Origin: Planctomycetaceae bacterium
Lineage (GTDB): Bacteria; Planctomycetota; Phycisphaerae; Phycisphaerales; SM1A02
Reading direction: 5' to 3'
DNA length: 64,000 bases
NCBI GenBank assembly: GCA_947490615.1
Contig: CANLHK010000002.1
Location: forward strand, 62,001-126,000
A program made the translations under genes and the position numbers. The notes below the pieces were generated by a model. It saw only the letters and a list, made by a program, of their open reading frames with translations. It made no database searches and was not told the origin of the DNA. Shown one piece after another: positions 18,052 through 58,106 of the stretch; position 1 is the stretch's first letter; every line of letters starts with the position of its first letter.

Positions 18052-18735
18052 ATGCCCAGCATCGATCACTTTCCCTCAACGCACCAAACTTGGATCCTCG
18101 ATCGGTTAGGCGAGGGGGATCGCGGCGCCTCCACACTGCGTGAGCACCTGATGGAGCGGTATCGGGAGCCGCTTCTGGTGTATGTGCGTGGCTCCACGCT
18201 GCGAACGCTCGGCGAGTCTGATGAGCTGGTGCACGGCTTCTTTGTGCACTTTCTCTCTCGCGAAGACTCGCTCACCCGCTGGGCCGAAAGCGGAACCCGT
18301 CTGCGCCGCTGGATGATGAACGGCCTCGTGCTCCACGCCCGAGGGGTCCGAAGCGATGCTGGCCGAAATCGGGAGACTCGCTCACTCGAAGCCGCGTCGG
18401 GACGCGCAAGCCATGAGCCGACCGCCGAAGAGGCCTATGAGTCGGCGTGGGCGCGCTCGTTGCTGTCTGACGCAGCGACTGCGGTTCAAGCCGAACTCGT
18501 CGCCGAGGGACGCGCGGCGGCCTGGGAAGTCTTTTCGAGACACATCATCGACGGGCACGCCTACGCCGAGTGCTGCACACCCCTAGGACTTTCAACCGAC
18601 GAAGGCCGAACGATCACCCGCATGGTGTCGATTCGTATCCGCCGCACGCTCCGAGAGTTGCTGCTCCAAGAAGGCACACCTGAAGGGAGCGCCAACGAGG
18701 AGTTGCGACAGCTCGAAGGGTTGCTCGAGCGATGA
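18052..18735 (+). CDS. Planctomycete-type ECF sigma-70 family factor
   Basis: 227 aa. The N-terminal HFPSTHQTWILDRLGEGD, then a region-2-like LREHLMERYREPLLVYVR and DELVHGFFVHFLSRE, are characteristic of the ECF-like sigma factors abundant in planctomycetes. The C-terminal part (WEVFSRHIIDGHAYAECC ... EGRTITRMVSIRIRRTLRELL) corresponds to region 4 and its helix-turn-helix. No anti-sigma gene is adjacent. Its stop overlaps an ATG (ATGA, 18732-18735) in frame with the next gene, though a better start for that gene is at 18969. It probably directs RNA polymerase to a small regulon; targets unknown. Confidence 0.8.
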   Translation: MPSIDHFPSTHQTWILDRLGEGDRGASTLREHLMERYREPLLVYVRGSTLRTLGESDELVHGFFVHFLSREDSLTRWAESGTRLRRWMMNGLVLHARGVRSDAGRNRETRSLEAASGRASHEPTAEEAYESAWARSLLSDAATAVQAELVAEGRAAAWEVFSRHIIDGHAYAECCTPLGLSTDEGRTITRMVSIRIRRTLRELLLQEGTPEGSANEELRQLEGLLER

Positions 18736-18955
18736 AGCGGGTGGGGTTTGATGCGGAGGCGATCGCTCGGCTGCGGCCGCACCTTCTTGAAGACAAACAC
18801 TCAGTACGGGGAAAGCACCTACGGGGCGTCGCAATTGGCATCGTGTTCTTCTTGCTCCTCGCGCACGGAGCGCGAGTGAGCGGCTCTTTCAGTCGCGGTG
18901 GTGCGCAAGCTGGCCGGAACGTTCGGATGGCAGCGCATCGCGAGGTCAGCCTAAC

Positions 18956-18961
18956 GGAGAG
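18956..18961 (+). promoter_or_regulatory. Shine-Dalgarno site of the beta-helix gene
   Basis: GGAGAG lies 7 nt before ATG 18969. It supports a start directly at the signal peptide over the longer frame that begins at 18732. Confidence 0.6.
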
Positions 18962-18968
18962 CTCACAG

Positions 18969-20726
18969 ATGAACCCGATTCGAGGTGCGGTGGTGGTGGC
19001 GGGGATGTTGGCAATGTCGGAGGCGCGCGGCGCGGATCTGCTGGTGCCAGAGCAGTTTCAGACAATTGTGCAAGCACTGACTGCTGCGCAAGCTGGCGAT
19101 GTCGTCTCGATTGCTCCTGGGACCTACGACGTTGGCATGTTGCTTCTCCCAAACCTTTCGATCACGCTTCGCGGTCGAGCGAGCAGCGGAGAGACGGTGC
19201 TCACAGGAGTCGATGTTCAAGTCCAAGGAGGAGCGTCGGTCAGGACCTTGGCGAACCTCACGATGCGAGGCTTCACTGGGTACGGAGCGTTCCATGTGAA
19301 CGGCGCAACGGCAACACTTGATGGAGTGCGCATTGAATTCAATGGTGTTCACGGGGTCTTTCTCGACCACAGCGCCACGCTGAACACGACGAACTGCACG
19401 ATTGCGAACAACCCGCGCGGCGCCTTCGCCTATGTCGGTTGCATGTGGAATGCCACCGACTGCAGGTTTGAGTCCAACGGCTACACCGATGCCTACGGCG
19501 GCGCAGTCGGGTTCCACATCGGCTCAGGCTGCAACTTCACTCGTTGCTCATTCATCGGAAACACCGCGGCGCTCGGAGGCGCGATCGGCCTGAGCTTCTC
19601 AGGATCGCGGATATTCGACGACTGTTACTTCGAGGGCAACGAGAGTCCCGATGGCGCGGTGTGGTGGACGGAGTTTGGTGCGACGGGCACACTGCGAAAC
19701 AGTGTGCTGTGCGGCGACTCCACGGCTGACCTTCATGGCAGTTGGGTGGACGGGGGAGGAAATCAGTTCTACCCCAAGGGTTGCGACGCGGAGCTGCGGG
19801 TCCCCGAGCGGTATCCGACGATCGCGCAGGCTCTATCCGCCGCAACGGACGGCGATGTCGTTTCGATTCGCGCTGGCACCTACGACGTTGGCTCTCTGTT
19901 GCTTCCCGATGTGCCCGTGACGCTCCGAGGTCGGTCGGGGATTTCCGAGACGGTGCTGACAGGGGTCGATGTTCAGGTTCAAGGCGGCGCGTCGGTCAGG
20001 ACGGTGGCGAACCTCACGATGCGAGGGTTCACTGGATACGGCGCGTTCCACCTGAACGGGGCGACTGCGACCCTTGACGGAGTGCGCGTTGAGTTCAATG
20101 AGCTTCACGGGATTTTCCTCGATCACAGCGCCACTCTGAACACGACCAACTGCACGATCGCCGACAACGAACGCGGCGCCTTCGCGTATGTCGGATGCAT
20201 GTGGAACGCGACCGACTGCAGGTTCGAATCGAACGGCTACACCGTTGCCTACGGCGGCGCAGTCGGATTCCACATCGGCTCAGGCTGCAACTTCACTCGC
20301 TGCTCATTCATCGGGAACACGGCAGCGCTTGGCGGCGCGATCGGTCTGAGTTTCTCGGGATCACGGATCTTCGACGACTGCTATTTCGAGGGGAACGAGA
20401 GTCCTGTCGGTGCGGTGTGGTGGACGGAGTTTGGTGCGACGGGCACCTTGCGAAACAGCATGCTGTGCGGTCACTCCCAGGCTGACATGCAAGGGAGTTG
20501 GATCGATGGGGGCGGCAACACCTTTGTGCCGCAGGGCTGCGGCGCACCTTGCCCGGCCGATCTCATCGCCGACTCGACCGTCAATGGTGCCGACATGGCC
20601 ATCGTCCTCAATTTCTGGGGCACCGATGGCTCGCAGTTCGCTGGCGTCGATCTCGATGGTGATGGAGTCGTCGGCGGAGCGGATCTCGCGCTGATCCTCA
20701 ACGCGTGGGGGCCATGTCCGCAGTGA
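18969..20726 (+). CDS. Secreted right-handed beta-helix protein with dockerin-like tail
   Basis: 585 aa from ATG 18969 (signal peptide NPIRGAVVVAGMLAMSEARGA). The mature protein has two nearly identical 252-residue blocks. Each begins with a (D/E)L(L/R)VP..(F/Y).TI.QAL motif and carries beta-helix rungs such as TLANLTMRGF, NTTNCTIANN and NFTRCSFIGNTAALGGAIGL. After the second block comes CPADLIADSTVNGADMAIVL and DLDGDGVVGGADLALIL, a pair of dockerin-like calcium loops typical of Phycisphaerae secreted proteins. The function could be polysaccharide binding or lysis, but no catalytic residues are evident. The frame is open back to 18732, overlapping the sigma gene; that 79-codon extension has one hydrophobic stretch and may not be translated. 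Confidence 0.85.
   Translation: MNPIRGAVVVAGMLAMSEARGADLLVPEQFQTIVQALTAAQAGDVVSIAPGTYDVGMLLLPNLSITLRGRASSGETVLTGVDVQVQGGASVRTLANLTMRGFTGYGAFHVNGATATLDGVRIEFNGVHGVFLDHSATLNTTNCTIANNPRGAFAYVGCMWNATDCRFESNGYTDAYGGAVGFHIGSGCNFTRCSFIGNTAALGGAIGLSFSGSRIFDDCYFEGNESPDGAVWWTEFGATGTLRNSVLCGDSTADLHGSWVDGGGNQFYPKGCDAELRVPERYPTIAQALSAATDGDVVSIRAGTYDVGSLLLPDVPVTLRGRSGISETVLTGVDVQVQGGASVRTVANLTMRGFTGYGAFHLNGATATLDGVRVEFNELHGIFLDHSATLNTTNCTIADNERGAFAYVGCMWNATDCRFESNGYTVAYGGAVGFHIGSGCNFTRCSFIGNTAALGGAIGLSFSGSRIFDDCYFEGNESPVGAVWWTEFGATGTLRNSMLCGHSQADMQGSWIDGGGNTFVPQGCGAPCPADLIADSTVNGADMAIVLNFWGTDGSQFAGVDLDGDGVVGGADLALILNAWGPCPQ
19035..19790 (+). repeat. 756-bp tandem duplication, unit 1
   Basis: First copy of an in-frame 252-codon block within the beta-helix gene. 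It shares long runs of identical residues with unit 2, especially in its second half. The DNA still differs at many third positions, so the copies are not brand new. Confidence 0.9.
19791..20546 (+). repeat. 756-bp tandem duplication, unit 2
   Basis: Second copy, directly abutting unit 1 and followed by the dockerin-like tail. The N-terminal 60 residues are more diverged than the rest. Confidence 0.9.
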
Positions 20727-55431: not shown

Positions 55432-56109
55432 ATGTCGGGTGAGGCGCACATCTCGAATGTCGCAGCGCTGGAGGAGTTCCGACGCGCGCTCATTCGATTC
55501 CGTGAGGACATGGGTATTGCCATGTCCGAAGCGGACAGCGAGATCAAGTCGACCTTCATTTGGCTCGAGCGAGATCGCGCGTTGCATTGGCGGCGTGCGG
55601 TACCGCGTTGCGAAGAAGAGCTGACCTCTGCGAAGCTCGCGGTGTTGCGCAAAGAGATGCAAACGATGGGCACGGGTCAACGCCCGTCGACGATCGACGA
55701 GCGCAAGCAGGTTGATCGCATGAAGAAGCGCGTGGAGTCTGCGCGTGAACGCATGGATCGCACCAAGCGGTGGATTGGCACGCTGCAGCGGGACATCTCG
55801 CTGTTCAAGGGCGCGATGGCGCCCGCGTCGTCGCTGGTCGATCGCGATCTGCCCGACGCGATTCTTCGTCTGCGCAACATGTCGCTGGCACTCGAGGCGT
55901 ATTTGGCGACGCCAACGCTTGGGCTCGCTGAGCAAGTTGAGCGCGCCAAAGCGAAGTTTGCCTCGATGCGTCGCGCCGGTGAGCAACGCACGGACGCCGA
56001 GGTCGCCTCGGATGAGCGCGAACAGGCGGAACTTGAAGCCGACGAGGCGGCGCTCGCGACGCTGCGCGATGCGGCGATCACAGCGTTGCGTGAAGGGGGC
56101 AGGCCGTGA
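55432..56109 (+). CDS. Coiled-coil protein of the small-helical-protein cluster
   Basis: 225 aa, almost entirely helical and charged. No signal peptide, membrane segment or catalytic motif. It opens NVAALEEFRRALIRFREDMGIAMSEADSEIK, followed by a Trp-containing segment (WLERDRALHW) and long heptad-type helices (DERKQVDRMKKRVESARERM). I know this arrangement only as a recurrent planctomycete hypothetical, found near small WXG100-like proteins. The stop overlaps the GTG start of the next gene by 4 nt. Probably an assembly or partner protein; role not known. Confidence 0.7.
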   Translation: MSGEAHISNVAALEEFRRALIRFREDMGIAMSEADSEIKSTFIWLERDRALHWRRAVPRCEEELTSAKLAVLRKEMQTMGTGQRPSTIDERKQVDRMKKRVESARERMDRTKRWIGTLQRDISLFKGAMAPASSLVDRDLPDAILRLRNMSLALEAYLATPTLGLAEQVERAKAKFASMRRAGEQRTDAEVASDEREQAELEADEAALATLRDAAITALREGGRP

Positions 56110-56330
56110 GCCTCTCCGATTCCAAGGCCCGCATGATGTCCGCCCATCGCGACCTCATGAACGCGTGGTACCGCGTGAGCGAGGCGTGGCACGACGACAC
56201 GGCGCGTCACTTTCGCGAGCGTTCGATCGAGCCCATCGAACGATCGTTGCGCAGCGCGATGAATGCCCTCGATGCGATGGACGAGACGCTCCGCAGAGTC
56301 CGCAGCGAGTGTGGCGACGACGCTCCATGA
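56106..56330 (+). CDS. Small helical protein with W-x-D-x5-F motif
   Basis: 74 aa from GTG 56106, overlapping the previous stop (GTGA). Two predicted helices are joined by a short turn containing W28-H-D30 ... F36, the same W-x-D-x5-F spacing as in the 90-aa protein downstream. In WXG100 (EsxA-like) proteins a W-x-G turn followed by a Phe eight residues after the Trp joins two helices. The length and composition fit this family, but with Asp in place of Gly. No secretion signal is visible apart from this fold. Confidence 0.65.
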   Translation: MSLSDSKARMMSAHRDLMNAWYRVSEAWHDDTARHFRERSIEPIERSLRSAMNALDAMDETLRRVRSECGDDAP

Positions 56331-56349
56331 TGCGAAGAGCGGGTCTGGT

Positions 56350-56355
56350 TAGACT
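56350..56355 (+). promoter_or_regulatory. Putative -10 box (TAGACT) of the 90-aa gene
   Basis: TAGACT ends 6 nt before ATG 56362. It lies 20 bp after the previous stop, so the 90-aa gene may have its own leaderless transcript. Confidence 0.35.
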
Positions 56356-56361
56356 GCGCGC

Positions 56362-56634
56362 ATGGCCAAGGCAATCGCAGACCCCGCTGAACTCAGGCGC
56401 TTTGCGCAGGATCTCCACCGATTCAACAGCGAGTTGCAGGGACAAGTCTCTGCGATGAACGCCAAAATGGGTGCGCTGCAAGGGACTTGGAAAGACCAGG
56501 AACAGCAGAAGTTTGCCGAAGAGTTCGACCAGACCACCAAGGTCTTGGTGAAGTTCCTGCGCGTCTCGGAGCAGCATGTTCCCTTCCTTGTCCGCAAGGC
56601 TGAGCGCCTTGAGGAATATCTGAAGCAGCGCTGA
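56362..56634 (+). CDS. WXG100-like small helical protein
   Basis: 90 aa, close to the roughly 100-aa length of the type VII secretion substrate/partner family. N-terminal helix (AIADPAELRRFAQDLHRFNSEL), then a turn at W43-K-D45 with F51, and a C-terminal helix (TTKVLVKFLRVSEQHVPFLVRKAERLEEYL). The overall helix-turn-helix hairpin resembles EsxA/B. The Gly of W-x-G is Asp. Planctomycetes lack a recognised full ESX system in this window: no FtsK/SpoIIIE ATPase is seen nearby. Ends 2 bp before the dehydrogenase gene. Confidence 0.7.
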   Translation: MAKAIADPAELRRFAQDLHRFNSELQGQVSAMNAKMGALQGTWKDQEQQKFAEEFDQTTKVLVKFLRVSEQHVPFLVRKAERLEEYLKQR

Positions 56635-56636
56635 TC

Positions 56637-58106
56637 ATGGCGCATCCTTCGGTGTTGCAGACCTCGTGCTATCTCGAAGGCGACTTCGTGCGTGGAGATT
56701 CGGCGCCTGTTGTCGTCATCGATCCGTCGCGCGATGTCCTGCTGGCCGAAGTCCCTGGCGTCAGCGCCGAGCTCACCAGACGCGCCGCAGAGTCCAACGC
56801 GCAAGGAGCGAAGGCGATGCGCGCCTTGCCACTCCTCACGCGTGTGGAACTGGTCCGCCGCCTCGGTGCAGCGCTGCGCGCACAGTCCGAGGCACTGGCT
56901 CGACTGCTGACCCTTGAAAGTGGCAAGCCCATCGTCGAGAGTCGCGGCGAAGTCGAGTACGCGGCGTCGTTCTTCGATCACGCTGCGTCGGCAGCGGAAT
57001 TGGCAGCAGGAGAGATTCCTGCTTCACGCGTTGCCGACCGCAGAGTGCTCGTGCTGCGTGAACCCGTGGGTGCCACGGTCGCGATTACGCCGTGGAACTT
57101 CCCGCTCGCGATGATCGCACGCAAACTCGCGCCCGCGCTTGCGGCGGGTTGCTCGCAAGTCCTCAAGCCTGCGGAGCAAACTCCACTCACGGCATTGGCC
57201 TTCGCGGAGATCTTTGCCAAGGAAGCCGCGGCTTGTGGCGCGCCGCGAAATGCGGTGAGCGTGGTCGTTGGCGATGCTCCATTGATCGCCCGCGTGCTGC
57301 TTGAACACCCATCGACACGCAAACTCACCTTTACGGGATCGACGGAAGTCGGCCGTATCCTTGCAGGACAGTGCGCGGCGCGACTGATTCGTCCTGCGTT
57401 GGAACTTGGCGGGAACGCGCCGTTCCTTGTCTTCGCCGATGCGGATCTTGATCGGGCGGTTGAACAGGCGATGCTCACCAAGTTCCGCTTCATGGGACAG
57501 ACCTGCATCTCTGCGAACCGCTTTCTGCTTGCGGAGTCGATCCAAGAGGAGTTCCTCCGCAGACTCGAGTCGCGCATGCGGCTTCTGACGGTTGGCGATC
57601 CAATGGAAGAAGCGACGCGTGTCGGACCGCTGATCAACGACGCGGGGCTGGCGAAGGTCCAGCGGCATGTCGCACAAGCAGTCGACCATGGCGCACGAGT
57701 TCGACTCGGCGGTGGCATCGTTGCAATGACGGGACTCTCCCGTCGGTTCTTCGCCCCGACCATCCTGGACGGATGTGCTCCGAGCATGCAGTGCGCCTGC
57801 GAAGAAACCTTCGGCCCAGTCGTGGCTGCGATGTCGTTTCAAACCGAGGAGGCGGCACTGCTCATGGCCAACGCCACTCCCTCAGGGCTCGCTGCGTATG
57901 TCATGACCCAGGACATCGATCGCCTGATGCGCGTGGCTGAAGCGCTTGATTGTGGCGTGGTGGGGGCCAACGACGGCGCGCCGAGCACCGCCGAGGCGCC
58001 GTTTGGTGGGCGGAAAGACTCAGGGTTTGGCCGCGAAGGCGGACACCACGGGCTCGACGCCTACACCGAGCTCAAGTATGTGAGCCTGCGGCTGCGCGCG
58101 AAGTGA
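56637..58106 (+). CDS. Aldehyde dehydrogenase, succinate-semialdehyde type
   Basis: 489 aa NAD(P)-dependent aldehyde dehydrogenase. Catalytic Glu in PALELGGNAPFLVF (about residue 256) and Cys in MGQTCISANRF (about 290). The cofactor site TPWNFPLAMIARKLAPAL, the KPAEQTPLTALAFAEIF block and FTGSTEVGRIL are typical of the succinate/glutarate-semialdehyde group (GabD-like). The C-terminal GGRKDSGFGREGGHHGLDAYTELKYV also fits. The exact aldehyde cannot be confirmed. It follows the 90-aa gene by 2 bp. Confidence 0.88.
   Translation: MAHPSVLQTSCYLEGDFVRGDSAPVVVIDPSRDVLLAEVPGVSAELTRRAAESNAQGAKAMRALPLLTRVELVRRLGAALRAQSEALARLLTLESGKPIVESRGEVEYAASFFDHAASAAELAAGEIPASRVADRRVLVLREPVGATVAITPWNFPLAMIARKLAPALAAGCSQVLKPAEQTPLTALAFAEIFAKEAAACGAPRNAVSVVVGDAPLIARVLLEHPSTRKLTFTGSTEVGRILAGQCAARLIRPALELGGNAPFLVFADADLDRAVEQAMLTKFRFMGQTCISANRFLLAESIQEEFLRRLESRMRLLTVGDPMEEATRVGPLINDAGLAKVQRHVAQAVDHGARVRLGGGIVAMTGLSRRFFAPTILDGCAPSMQCACEETFGPVVAAMSFQTEEAALLMANATPSGLAAYVMTQDIDRLMRVAEALDCGVVGANDGAPSTAEAPFGGRKDSGFGREGGHHGLDAYTELKYVSLRLRAK

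What the first reader, a model, noticed from the sequence alone, without database searches (positions are those of the whole stretch)
55432..56634. Three-gene cluster of small helical proteins with a W-x-D-x5-F turn
Seen directly: a 225-aa coiled-coil protein is translationally coupled to a 74-aa protein, followed 31 bp later by a 90-aa protein. Both small proteins have a W-x-D-x5-F turn between two helices. Established: WXG100 (EsxA-like) proteins have a helical hairpin with W-x-G and a Phe at the same spacing, and are substrates or partners of type VII secretion. Inference: this could be a diderm relative of WXG100 systems with a changed turn. No FtsK-type ATPase is in the window, so the machinery, if any, lies elsewhere. 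It is the best candidate here for an undescribed system.
Basis: partly seen in the sequence, partly recalled or inferred. Interest (0 to 1): 0.65.

Follow-up and report, generated by a model that had tools for sequence, protein, structure and literature searches.

The report
Minimal type VII-like secretion operon
Three small helical proteins, together with a motor ATPase encoded elsewhere in the same genome, form a compact four-gene relative of the type VII (ESAT-6) protein secretion system that is kept as a unit in many planctomycete bacteria, which have two membranes and are not where such systems are usually studied.

Summary
The three ORFs are real and as described. The 90-aa protein is a WXG100 protein (Pfam PF06013, 43.3 bits, cut-off 27.3); its family profile best matches H. 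pylori HP0062, which also has W-x-D. The 74-aa protein is a divergent WXG100-type hairpin. The 225-aa protein is a long predicted helical hairpin.

The missing ATPase lies about 108 kb away: about 1300 aa, EccC/EssC-like, one Walker A, two hydrophobic segments. In relatives the usual order is WXG100, coiled coil, small hairpin, ATPase (73 of 80 named loci; 6 of the other 7 stop at a contig end). Over 294 planctomycete genomes, WXG100 and ATPase occur together in 38 of the 41 that hold either. No other gene family accompanies the operon in more than 15 of 116 loci. YukD was not found in the own genome.

The kind is not new: WXG plus a three-module, middle-active ATPase was noted for planctomycetes in 2012 and called a minimal T7SS in Helicobacter. 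Not in what I read: the constant four-gene chromosomal unit, the membrane hairpin, the split in the own lineage, and Imm33-like domains fused to the coiled coil in some relatives, which suggest a modular carrier. Export is inferred, not shown.

The parts
55432..56109 (+). 225-aa coiled-coil protein (P0001): predicted long helical hairpin (helices 10-76 and 88-159) plus helices 165-179 and 188-221; proposed carrier/cargo
   Evidence: ORF; AlphaFold2 mean pLDDT 91.2; 70 aligned rows with W53 and Y157 invariant and W44, W114 nearly so; homologues in 39 of 61 genomes, own included
56106..56330 (+). 74-aa small hairpin protein (P0002), GTG start overlapping the P0001 stop by 4 bp; divergent WXG100-type
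   Evidence: ORF; AlphaFold2 hairpin 3-27/31-69, pLDDT 91.6; 15 of 67 family members match TIGR03930 and 7 of 67 PF06013 at E<=0.01; W28 and D30 invariant
56187..56213 (+). W-x-D-x5-F turn of P0002 (residues 28-36)
   Evidence: sequence
56362..56634 (+). 90-aa WXG100 protein (P0003)
   Evidence: PF06013 43.3 bits, cut-off 27.3; profile best PDB match HP0062 3fx7 E 6.6e-12, single-sequence best match B. anthracis EsxB 4.4e-6; pN/pS 0.057 within genus
56488..56514 (+). W-x-D-x5-F turn of P0003 (residues 43-51)
   Evidence: sequence; D in 27 of 27 rows and 28 of 28 profile-found loci
56637..58106 (+). Flanking gene, not counted as part of the system: aldehyde dehydrogenase starting 2 bp after the WXG100 gene
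   Evidence: PF00171 491 bits; aldehyde dehydrogenase genes are in 12 of 116 loci, 5 of them outside the own genus

Best explanation
The three genes are the small-protein part of a stand-alone, chromosomal, minimal type VII-like (EccC/EssC plus WXG100) export operon of Planctomycetota; its motor is the roughly 1300-aa ATPase at contig C2:226434-230324 of the same genome. Proposed working: the ATPase sits in the inner membrane by its two hydrophobic segments and forms a ring (inferred from EccC). WXG100 protein P0003, as a homodimer or paired with P0002, docks on the ATPase through its helical hairpin and conserved C-terminal tail and switches it on. It delivers the long hairpin P0001, bare in this genome and carrying an Imm33-like domain in some relatives, for transport across the inner membrane. 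Shown: gene content, order, co-retention, family membership of P0003, predicted hairpins for P0002 and P0001, single Walker A ATPase. Inferred: ring assembly, docking, direction and fact of transport, and that P0001 is the cargo or carrier. The outer-membrane step, if any, is unknown.
For: P0003 is WXG100 by Pfam and matches HP0062, EsxB and EsxA structures by profile. P0002 is a predicted hairpin whose first Foldseek match is the EsxA:EsxB structure 4lws (TMq 0.77, but E 0.72), with weak WXG100 profile hits in relatives. P0004 matches EccCa (TIGR03924 4e-36, 125 bits, below its cut-off of 509), PDB 4nh0 1.3e-36 and EccC5 4.4e-28. Order WXG100 - P0001 - P0002 - ATPase in 73 of 80 loci. The four families are called in 77-90 of 116 loci, the next most frequent in 15, and outside the own genus none in more than 9. 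WXG100 and ATPase together in 38 of 294 genomes, WXG100 alone in 2, ATPase alone in 1, neither in 253. They are co-retained even where far apart on one contig (G000, G004; G083, G161, G207). One Walker A in 83 of 83 ATPase rows, at least two hydrophobic segments in 61 of 83. Imm33-like domain fused to P0001 over the Pfam cut-off in 6 of 9 scanned; in 61 genomes all 3 Imm33-like hits over cut-off are inside this operon's P0001. On a Helicobacter plasmid a WXG-like gene and this ATPase flank a coiled-coil WHH nuclease and a SUKH immunity gene.
Against: No secretion data. YukD was not found in the own genome, EccB was not found over cut-off (but no control genome rang), and no membrane partner accompanies the operon widely, so no pore beyond the ATPase is known. 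Of 83 ATPase rows, 10 show no hydrophobic segment above threshold before Walker A and 12 show one. No C-terminal YxxxD/E export motif in P0001-P0003. Homologous operons in other phyla sit in Ter/TerY-P-type loci. P0001 resembles only generic coiled coils. The link of P0001 to the coiled-coil proteins of other phyla is weak: 16.6 bits for one, 9.6 for another, 0 convincing for the Helicobacter nuclease, where it rests on gene position and coiled coil only. [quoted passage not shown] One of 80 loci (L175) has the WXG100 gene without the others in 20 kb.
Confidence: 0.6

Rival explanations
1. A cytoplasmic stress or conflict complex: the EssC-like ATPase remodels a WXG100/coiled-coil assembly inside the cell (as an anti-phage or damage-response module) and secretes nothing.
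For: Relatives of the ATPase on plasmids lie beside TerD/DUF475 and VWA, PP2C, Ser/Thr kinase and CARF genes; PMC11090510 describes the same ATPase/WXG100 set inside CoCoNuT/TerY-P loci without transmembrane domains (passages); in planctomycetes two clades and one further row also lack clear hydrophobic segments.
Against: No other gene family accompanies the planctomycete operon in more than 15 of 116 loci (9 outside the own genus); of the ten frequent neighbours scanned, eight are ordinary genes (RpoD-type sigma factor, aldehyde dehydrogenase, primase-type Toprim, L28 and the like) and two match nothing. 61 of 83 ATPase rows have a membrane hairpin. No PADLOC model hits P0001-P0003. The ATPase is in 36 of 37 genomes of family f1, unlike a patchy defence island, although it is in only 39 of 294 over the phylum.
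Confidence: 0.27
2. A DNA-handling complex: the FtsK-type ATPase pumps DNA and the coiled-coil and hairpin proteins are accessory segregation factors.
For: FtsK/SpoIIIE fold; in G000, G004, G013 and G031 the ATPase gene lies beside topA.
Against: Best solved and curated matches are EccC/EssC, not FtsK translocase; a separate 926-aa ORF with a much stronger FtsK match exists; the topA adjacency was seen only in the own genus and G031; WXG100 partners point to type VII.
Confidence: 0.07
3. A decayed remnant of an ordinary T7SSa/b whose other parts were lost or lie elsewhere.
For: EccC-like ATPase and WXG100 are the two parts shared by the T7SS types in PMC11217815.
Against: Purifying selection; the same four genes over several families; the ATPase has one Walker A and a coiled-coil-like N-terminus.
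Confidence: 0.06

Closest known systems
Stand-alone WXG / YueA-like ATPase sets of diderms ('mobile versions of T7SS', PMC3482391 table footnote; [quoted passage not shown]
   Same: WXG100 protein with W-x-D (HP0062 has WRD) and a distinct EssC-like ATPase with three FtsK-type modules of which only the middle has a Walker A; planctomycetes are named in the footnote
   Different: Here chromosomal and in 36 of 37 genomes of family f1, with two further constant partners (P0001, P0002) that the passages I read do not mention
[quoted passage not shown]
   Same: EssC-like ATPase with N-terminal coiled coil and one active module; two WXG100 proteins, one divergent; a separate coiled-coil protein (passages)
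   Different: The paper says those ATPases lack transmembrane domains; 61 of 83 planctomycete rows have at least two hydrophobic segments. The coiled coil here carries no nuclease, and no CoCoNuT-type neighbour was seen among the ten frequent neighbours scanned
T7SSa/T7SSb (ESX, Ess/Yuk) and T7SSc-j (PMC11217815)
   Same: WXG100 protein plus membrane EccC/EssC-type ATPase
   Different: YukD not found in the own genome, EccB not found over cut-off; ATPase with one Walker A and a coiled-coil-like N-terminus; Planctomycetota rather than Actinomycetota/Bacillota

Membership tests
WXG100 protein family (P0003) | Score above the Pfam PF06013 cut-off | tested here: met
   43.3 bits against 27.3; TIGR03930 38.8 bits, below its stricter 44.85
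WXG100 protein family (P0003) | W-x-G in the turn | tested here: not met
   W-x-D in 27 of 27 and 28 of 28 rows; the variant is also in HP0062
WXG100 protein family (P0002) | Helical hairpin and profile match | tested here: inconclusive
   Hairpin predicted, first Foldseek match EsxA:EsxB at E 0.72; window protein 15.6 bits to TIGR03930, below cut-off; 15 of 67 relatives match TIGR03930 at E<=0.01; hhalign to P0003 probability 30
Type VII secretion system | EccC/EssC-type FtsK ATPase co-occurring with WXG100 | tested here: met
   (homology to EccCa 125 bits, below the equivalog cut-off of 509)
Type VII secretion system | Predicted transmembrane segments in the ATPase | tested here: met
   Two hydrophobic segments at 240 and 268 of P0004 by Kyte-Doolittle; no dedicated topology predictor run; 22 of 83 family rows have fewer than two
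Type VII secretion system | Ubiquitin-like YukD/EsaB (or EccD domain) | tested here: not met
   0 in own genome; over cut-off in 1 of 61 genomes (G007); B. subtilis control rings. PMC11217815 reports that T7SSd also lacks it
T7SSa | EccB | tested here: inconclusive
   0 of 61 over cut-off, one fragment at E 0.0087 in G011, and none of 14 control genomes rang
T7SSb | EssB, EsaA, EssA | not tested
   No family search made; no neighbour family accompanies the operon widely
Type VII secretion system | WXG100 export dependent on the ATPase | not testable with these tools
   Needs experiment
Stand-alone WXG/FtsK 'mobile T7SS' of diderms | Three FtsK-type modules, only the middle one with Walker A | tested here: met
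   One Walker A in 83 of 83 rows; conserved blocks without Walker A on both sides
Stand-alone WXG/FtsK 'mobile T7SS' of diderms | Mobility | tested here: inconclusive
   In 36 of 37 genomes of family f1; planctomycete ATPases group together in a quick tree (support 94, long outgroup branches, midpoint root); patchy over the phylum (39 of 294); no targeted search for mobile genes beside it

The most novel reading that the evidence does not exclude
Planctomycetes use a membrane-anchored, four-gene core type VII-like export machine in which the long coiled-coil protein P0001 is a modular carrier, bare or fused to conflict-type domains (Imm33-like here, nucleases in other phyla), escorted by two W-x-D WXG100 hairpins: a diderm protein export route without the usual T7SS accessory membrane proteins.
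Probability: 0.4. Interest if true: 0.75.

Novelty: new variant of a known kind. Interest (0 to 1): 0.52.

Why it matters
T7SS is taught as a Gram-positive and mycobacterial system. A four-gene set reduced to motor, two hairpins and one coiled coil, retained by environmental two-membraned bacteria, would show how few parts evolution keeps together and would make it directly testable whether WXG100 plus ATPase suffices for transport. It also offers a simple system for asking why WXG100 proteins and EccC-type ATPases travel together.

Tried and rejected
Helicobacter HP0062-HP0066 gene-by-gene comparison: the single genome-contig scan returned no Helicobacter, so the chromosomal H. pylori cluster was not compared; a Helicobacter plasmid locus was used instead. 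Profile-profile search for a WXG100 domain inside P0001: probabilities 3 and 1.6, rejected. Fold searches of P0001: 0 matches at E <= 0.001, only generic coiled coils (VIPP1/PspA, YscO, Smc arms); absence of a named family there excludes nothing. CorA, Fer4, pAB02 and other sub-threshold matches: treated as chance or coiled-coil composition. PADLOC SspH/mad8/HerA matches of P0004: they lie on the shared FtsK/HerA ATPase core. Promoter scan found none and one terminator-like site, as in shuffles.

Corrected: my first clustering of neighbours stopped too early in its loop and showed only the four families; the repeat finds nine other families in 8 to 15 of 116 loci, and I use that one. Those nine and one more were scanned.

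Limits of the counts: W-x-D in 80 of 80 pattern-found loci is biased for P0003, because one scan pattern contained W[RK]D; searches are the unbiased counts. One search kept the best 80 of 99 confirmed loci. The 116 loci hold at least three pairs from one record (L133/L167, L128/L181, L139/L156), and the 83 ATPase rows hold four duplicates. Rows dropped: those four and L257 before the tree; from earlier loci, P0001 candidates over 280 aa left out of A4, and from later loci only the matched part used, so A4 does not show Imm33 fusions; of 81 and 82 non-redundant P0001 and P0002 sequences the first 70 were printed, and A4 used 70 and A5 67. E-values are for a list of a few dozen proteins, so I quote bits. 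In one search, 302 plasmid records matched and six neighbourhoods were read; many of the others are ordinary EccC. In some searches only 12 of 15, 13 and 47 places in the papers were shown.

Full report
Observation. The GTG of the 74-aa gene overlaps the stop of the 225-aa gene by 4 bp; the 90-aa gene follows after 31 bp and ends 2 bp before an aldehyde dehydrogenase gene. Both small proteins carry W-x-D-x5-F. In 50 genes called in the window this pattern occurs four times, twice here and twice in one 664-aa protein. All three genes look to be under purifying selection in the genus: median pN/pS 0.279 (15 sequences), 0.286 (13) and 0.057 (12) for the 225-, 74- and 90-aa genes; synonymous sites are far diverged (median pS 0.59-0.66), so these are rough.

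Identity of the 90-aa protein (P0003). It scores 43.3 bits to Pfam WXG100 against a cut-off of 27.3 and 38.8 to TIGR03930, below that model's 44.85. As a single sequence its best solved match is B. anthracis EsxB (4.4e-6), with HP0062 of H. pylori at 3.6e-5. With a 27-row family profile HP0062 comes first (3fx7, 6.6e-12), then B. anthracis EsxB (8e-9) and S. aureus EsxA (1.4e-4). HP0062 has WRD in the turn, and PMC3397514 notes both that and gene clustering with an FtsK/SpoIIIE protein (passages). W43, D45, Q46, E47, F51 and Y86 are invariant in the 27 rows, and the C-terminus is mostly Y-L-x-Q-R.

Identity of the 74-aa protein (P0002). AlphaFold2 predicts a hairpin, helices 3-27 and 31-69, mean pLDDT 91.6. 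The first Foldseek match is the EsxA:EsxB structure 4lws (TMq 0.77, E 0.72), none reaches E 0.001, and many of the 50 listed are WXG100 proteins; the VIA Z of 7.8 (rmsd 1.7, 70 aligned) to EsxB is not decisive for helical hairpins, as de novo bundles score nearly the same. Of 67 relatives, 15 match TIGR03930 and 7 match PF06013 at E<=0.01, best 4.3e-6 and 3.9e-6. The window protein itself gives only E 0.013, and hhalign against P0003 gives probability 30. I call it WXG100-type, divergent. Residue 69, a cysteine, is invariant in 31 rows but not in the wider 67.

Identity of the 225-aa protein (P0001). No convincing family match. Predicted helices 10-76, 88-159, 165-179 and 188-221, mean pLDDT 91.2; fold searches give only generic coiled coils. 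W53 and Y157 are invariant and W44 and W114 nearly so in 70 rows.

The missing motor. The genome has two strong FtsK_SpoIIIE loci: a 926-aa ORF, and a protein (P0004) at C2:226434-230324, about 108 kb from the cluster. I read P0004 as 1296 aa; the open frame allows 1307. It is EccC/EssC-like: TIGR03924 125 bits (cut-off 509), PDB 4nh0 1.3e-36, EccC5 4.4e-28, YukB 3.5e-17. In 83 aligned family rows there is exactly one Walker A each; conserved blocks flank it on both sides without a Walker A; the first ~465 residues are poorly conserved. Two hydrophobic segments (240, 268) precede it in P0004; 61 of 83 rows have at least two, 12 one, 10 none. The rows without them form two clades plus one single row on the ATPase tree.

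Operon. In 61 genomes, own included, the ATPase is in 41, P0001 in 39 and P0003 in 36. Every genome with a P0003 match has P0001, and every genome with P0001 has the ATPase. P0003 and P0001 are on one contig in 35 of 36; the other, G012, has them on two contigs. Outside the own genus and G031 the usual order is WXG100, P0001, P0002, ATPase. The scan of named genomes kept the best 80 of 99 loci: 73 have all four in that order, six of the other seven stop at the contig end, and one (L175) has the WXG100 gene alone. That list includes Adhaeretor mobilis HG15A2 and Planctomycetales bacterium 10988. In 116 loci with 1348 called proteins the four families are called in 77-90 loci each; the next family is in 15, and outside the own genus none is in more than 9. 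Ten frequent neighbours were scanned: sigma-70, aldehyde dehydrogenase, Toprim, UDP-glucose dehydrogenase, L28, ClpB-type, OPT transporter and GAF families, and two without a match, as expected of shared synteny. Over 294 genomes of the phylum: WXG100 40, ATPase 39, both 38, neither 253. In G000, G004, G083, G161 and G207 WXG100 and ATPase are from 108 kb to 3.4 Mb apart on one contig and still both present. In G000, G004, G013 and G031 the ATPase gene adjoins topA, and these rows group together in the ATPase tree, so the split probably predates the genus (inference).

Wider relatives. tblastn of P0004 against plasmids matches 302 records, among them Rhodococcus, Caballeronia, Deinococcus and Helicobacter. 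Six neighbourhoods were read. Four hold a WXG100-like protein that the P0003 profile finds (79.7, 54.3, 48.2 and 30.0 bits), all with W-x-D. In Rhodococcus AH-ZY2 the order is ATPase, 314 aa, 73 aa, WXG100, then TerD; the 314-aa protein is the best P0001-profile match, at only 16.6 bits. On the Helicobacter plasmid the WXG gene (24.0 bits to PF06013, below cut-off) is followed by a 340-aa protein with a WHH nuclease domain, a SUKH-family immunity gene, a 77-aa gene and the ATPase. The Deinococcus ATPase shows no Walker A pattern. The two remaining neighbourhoods (R. pseudokoreensis, Sinorhizobium) have no clear P0003 relative.

Imm33-like domain. In 11 loci (10 distinct records, as L133 and L167 are one) P0001 is about 330-390 aa long and ends in a stretch with a DSGW motif. 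Nine were scanned: six exceed the Pfam Imm33-like cut-off (32.1-54.6 bits; cut-off 27), one scores 12.7, two match Imm33 weakly. In the 61 genomes, all three Imm33-like matches over cut-off lie inside this operon's P0001; a fourth below cut-off is in G058, which lacks the operon; none is in the own genome. On the ATPase tree these loci need at least three changes (shuffled mean 6.8), so one origin with losses is not excluded. Imm33 is a predicted immunity domain of polymorphic toxin systems (PMC3482391 passages). With the nuclease in the equivalent gene position elsewhere, this suggests that P0001 is a carrier with exchangeable C-terminal domains; the window's P0001 is bare. [quoted passage not shown]

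Missing T7SS parts. YukD is not found in the own genome and is over cut-off in 1 of 61 genomes, while the B. subtilis control rings. EccB is not found over cut-off, but without a positive control. EssB and EsaA were not searched. P0001-P0003 have no hydrophobic segment and no C-terminal YxxxD/E; P0002 has one such string in its first helix.

What is known. PMC11217815 (passages and Discussion) describes T7SSa-j in Actinomycetota and Bacillota. PMC3935865 (one passage) finds its WXG100 set almost only in Actinobacteria and Firmicutes, with a few from Chloroflexi. [quoted passage not shown] PMC4978471 calls WxG plus FtsK in H. pylori a minimal set of T7SS (section 17). PMC11090510 describes such ATPases with N-terminal coiled coils, no transmembrane domains, two WXG100 proteins and a coiled-coil nuclease in CoCoNuT loci, and cites Anantharaman 2012, which I did not see, for a stand-alone version (passages). 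Apart from these, no title listed in my searches (only the first 15-25 of longer lists shown) is about a planctomycete T7SS operon; two that held both words were opened and are not (PMC4631099, PMC12419801; passages). So the kind is known; the constant four-gene chromosomal unit, the membrane hairpin and the Imm33-fused coiled coil were not in what I read.

Verdict. Best reading: a stand-alone, minimal type VII-like export operon (0.6), chiefly against a cytoplasmic conflict complex (0.27). The parts list is well supported; transport is inference.

Noticed in passing
L117, L129, L133, L147, L160, L164, L166, L167, L168, L195, L215 (P0001 gene): C-terminal DSGW / Imm33-like domain fused to the coiled-coil protein in several lineages; the equivalent gene position carries a nuclease on a Helicobacter plasmid.
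   Followed up: partly
L256:6728-11130: Helicobacter sp. NHP19-012 plasmid: WXG100-like gene, WHH nuclease gene, SUKH immunity gene, 77-aa gene and EssC-like ATPase in a row, looking like a toxin-immunity pair inside a minimal type VII-like locus in a Gram-negative.
   Followed up: partly
L172 and L189: MAG contigs titled Chitinophaga pinensis and Alphaproteobacteria carry the planctomycete operon with ATPases nested among planctomycete rows: probably mislabelled or contaminated MAGs.
   Followed up: no
window 56362-58106: In the own genus the WXG100 gene lies downstream of the small hairpin gene, here 2 bp before an aldehyde dehydrogenase gene, so the two may share a transcript.
   Followed up: no
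L165, L177, L191, L162, L179, L209; L150, L159, L196, L201; L210: Two clades of the ATPase and one further row lack clear hydrophobic segments, so anchoring may have been lost or gained more than once.
   Followed up: partly
G134 C126 and C138: One planctomycete genome has two long ATPase matches on different contigs, apparently two copies.
   Followed up: no
window 18732-20726: 664-aa protein with two W-x-D-G-G-G-N-x-F strings, found by the pattern scan only.
   Followed up: no
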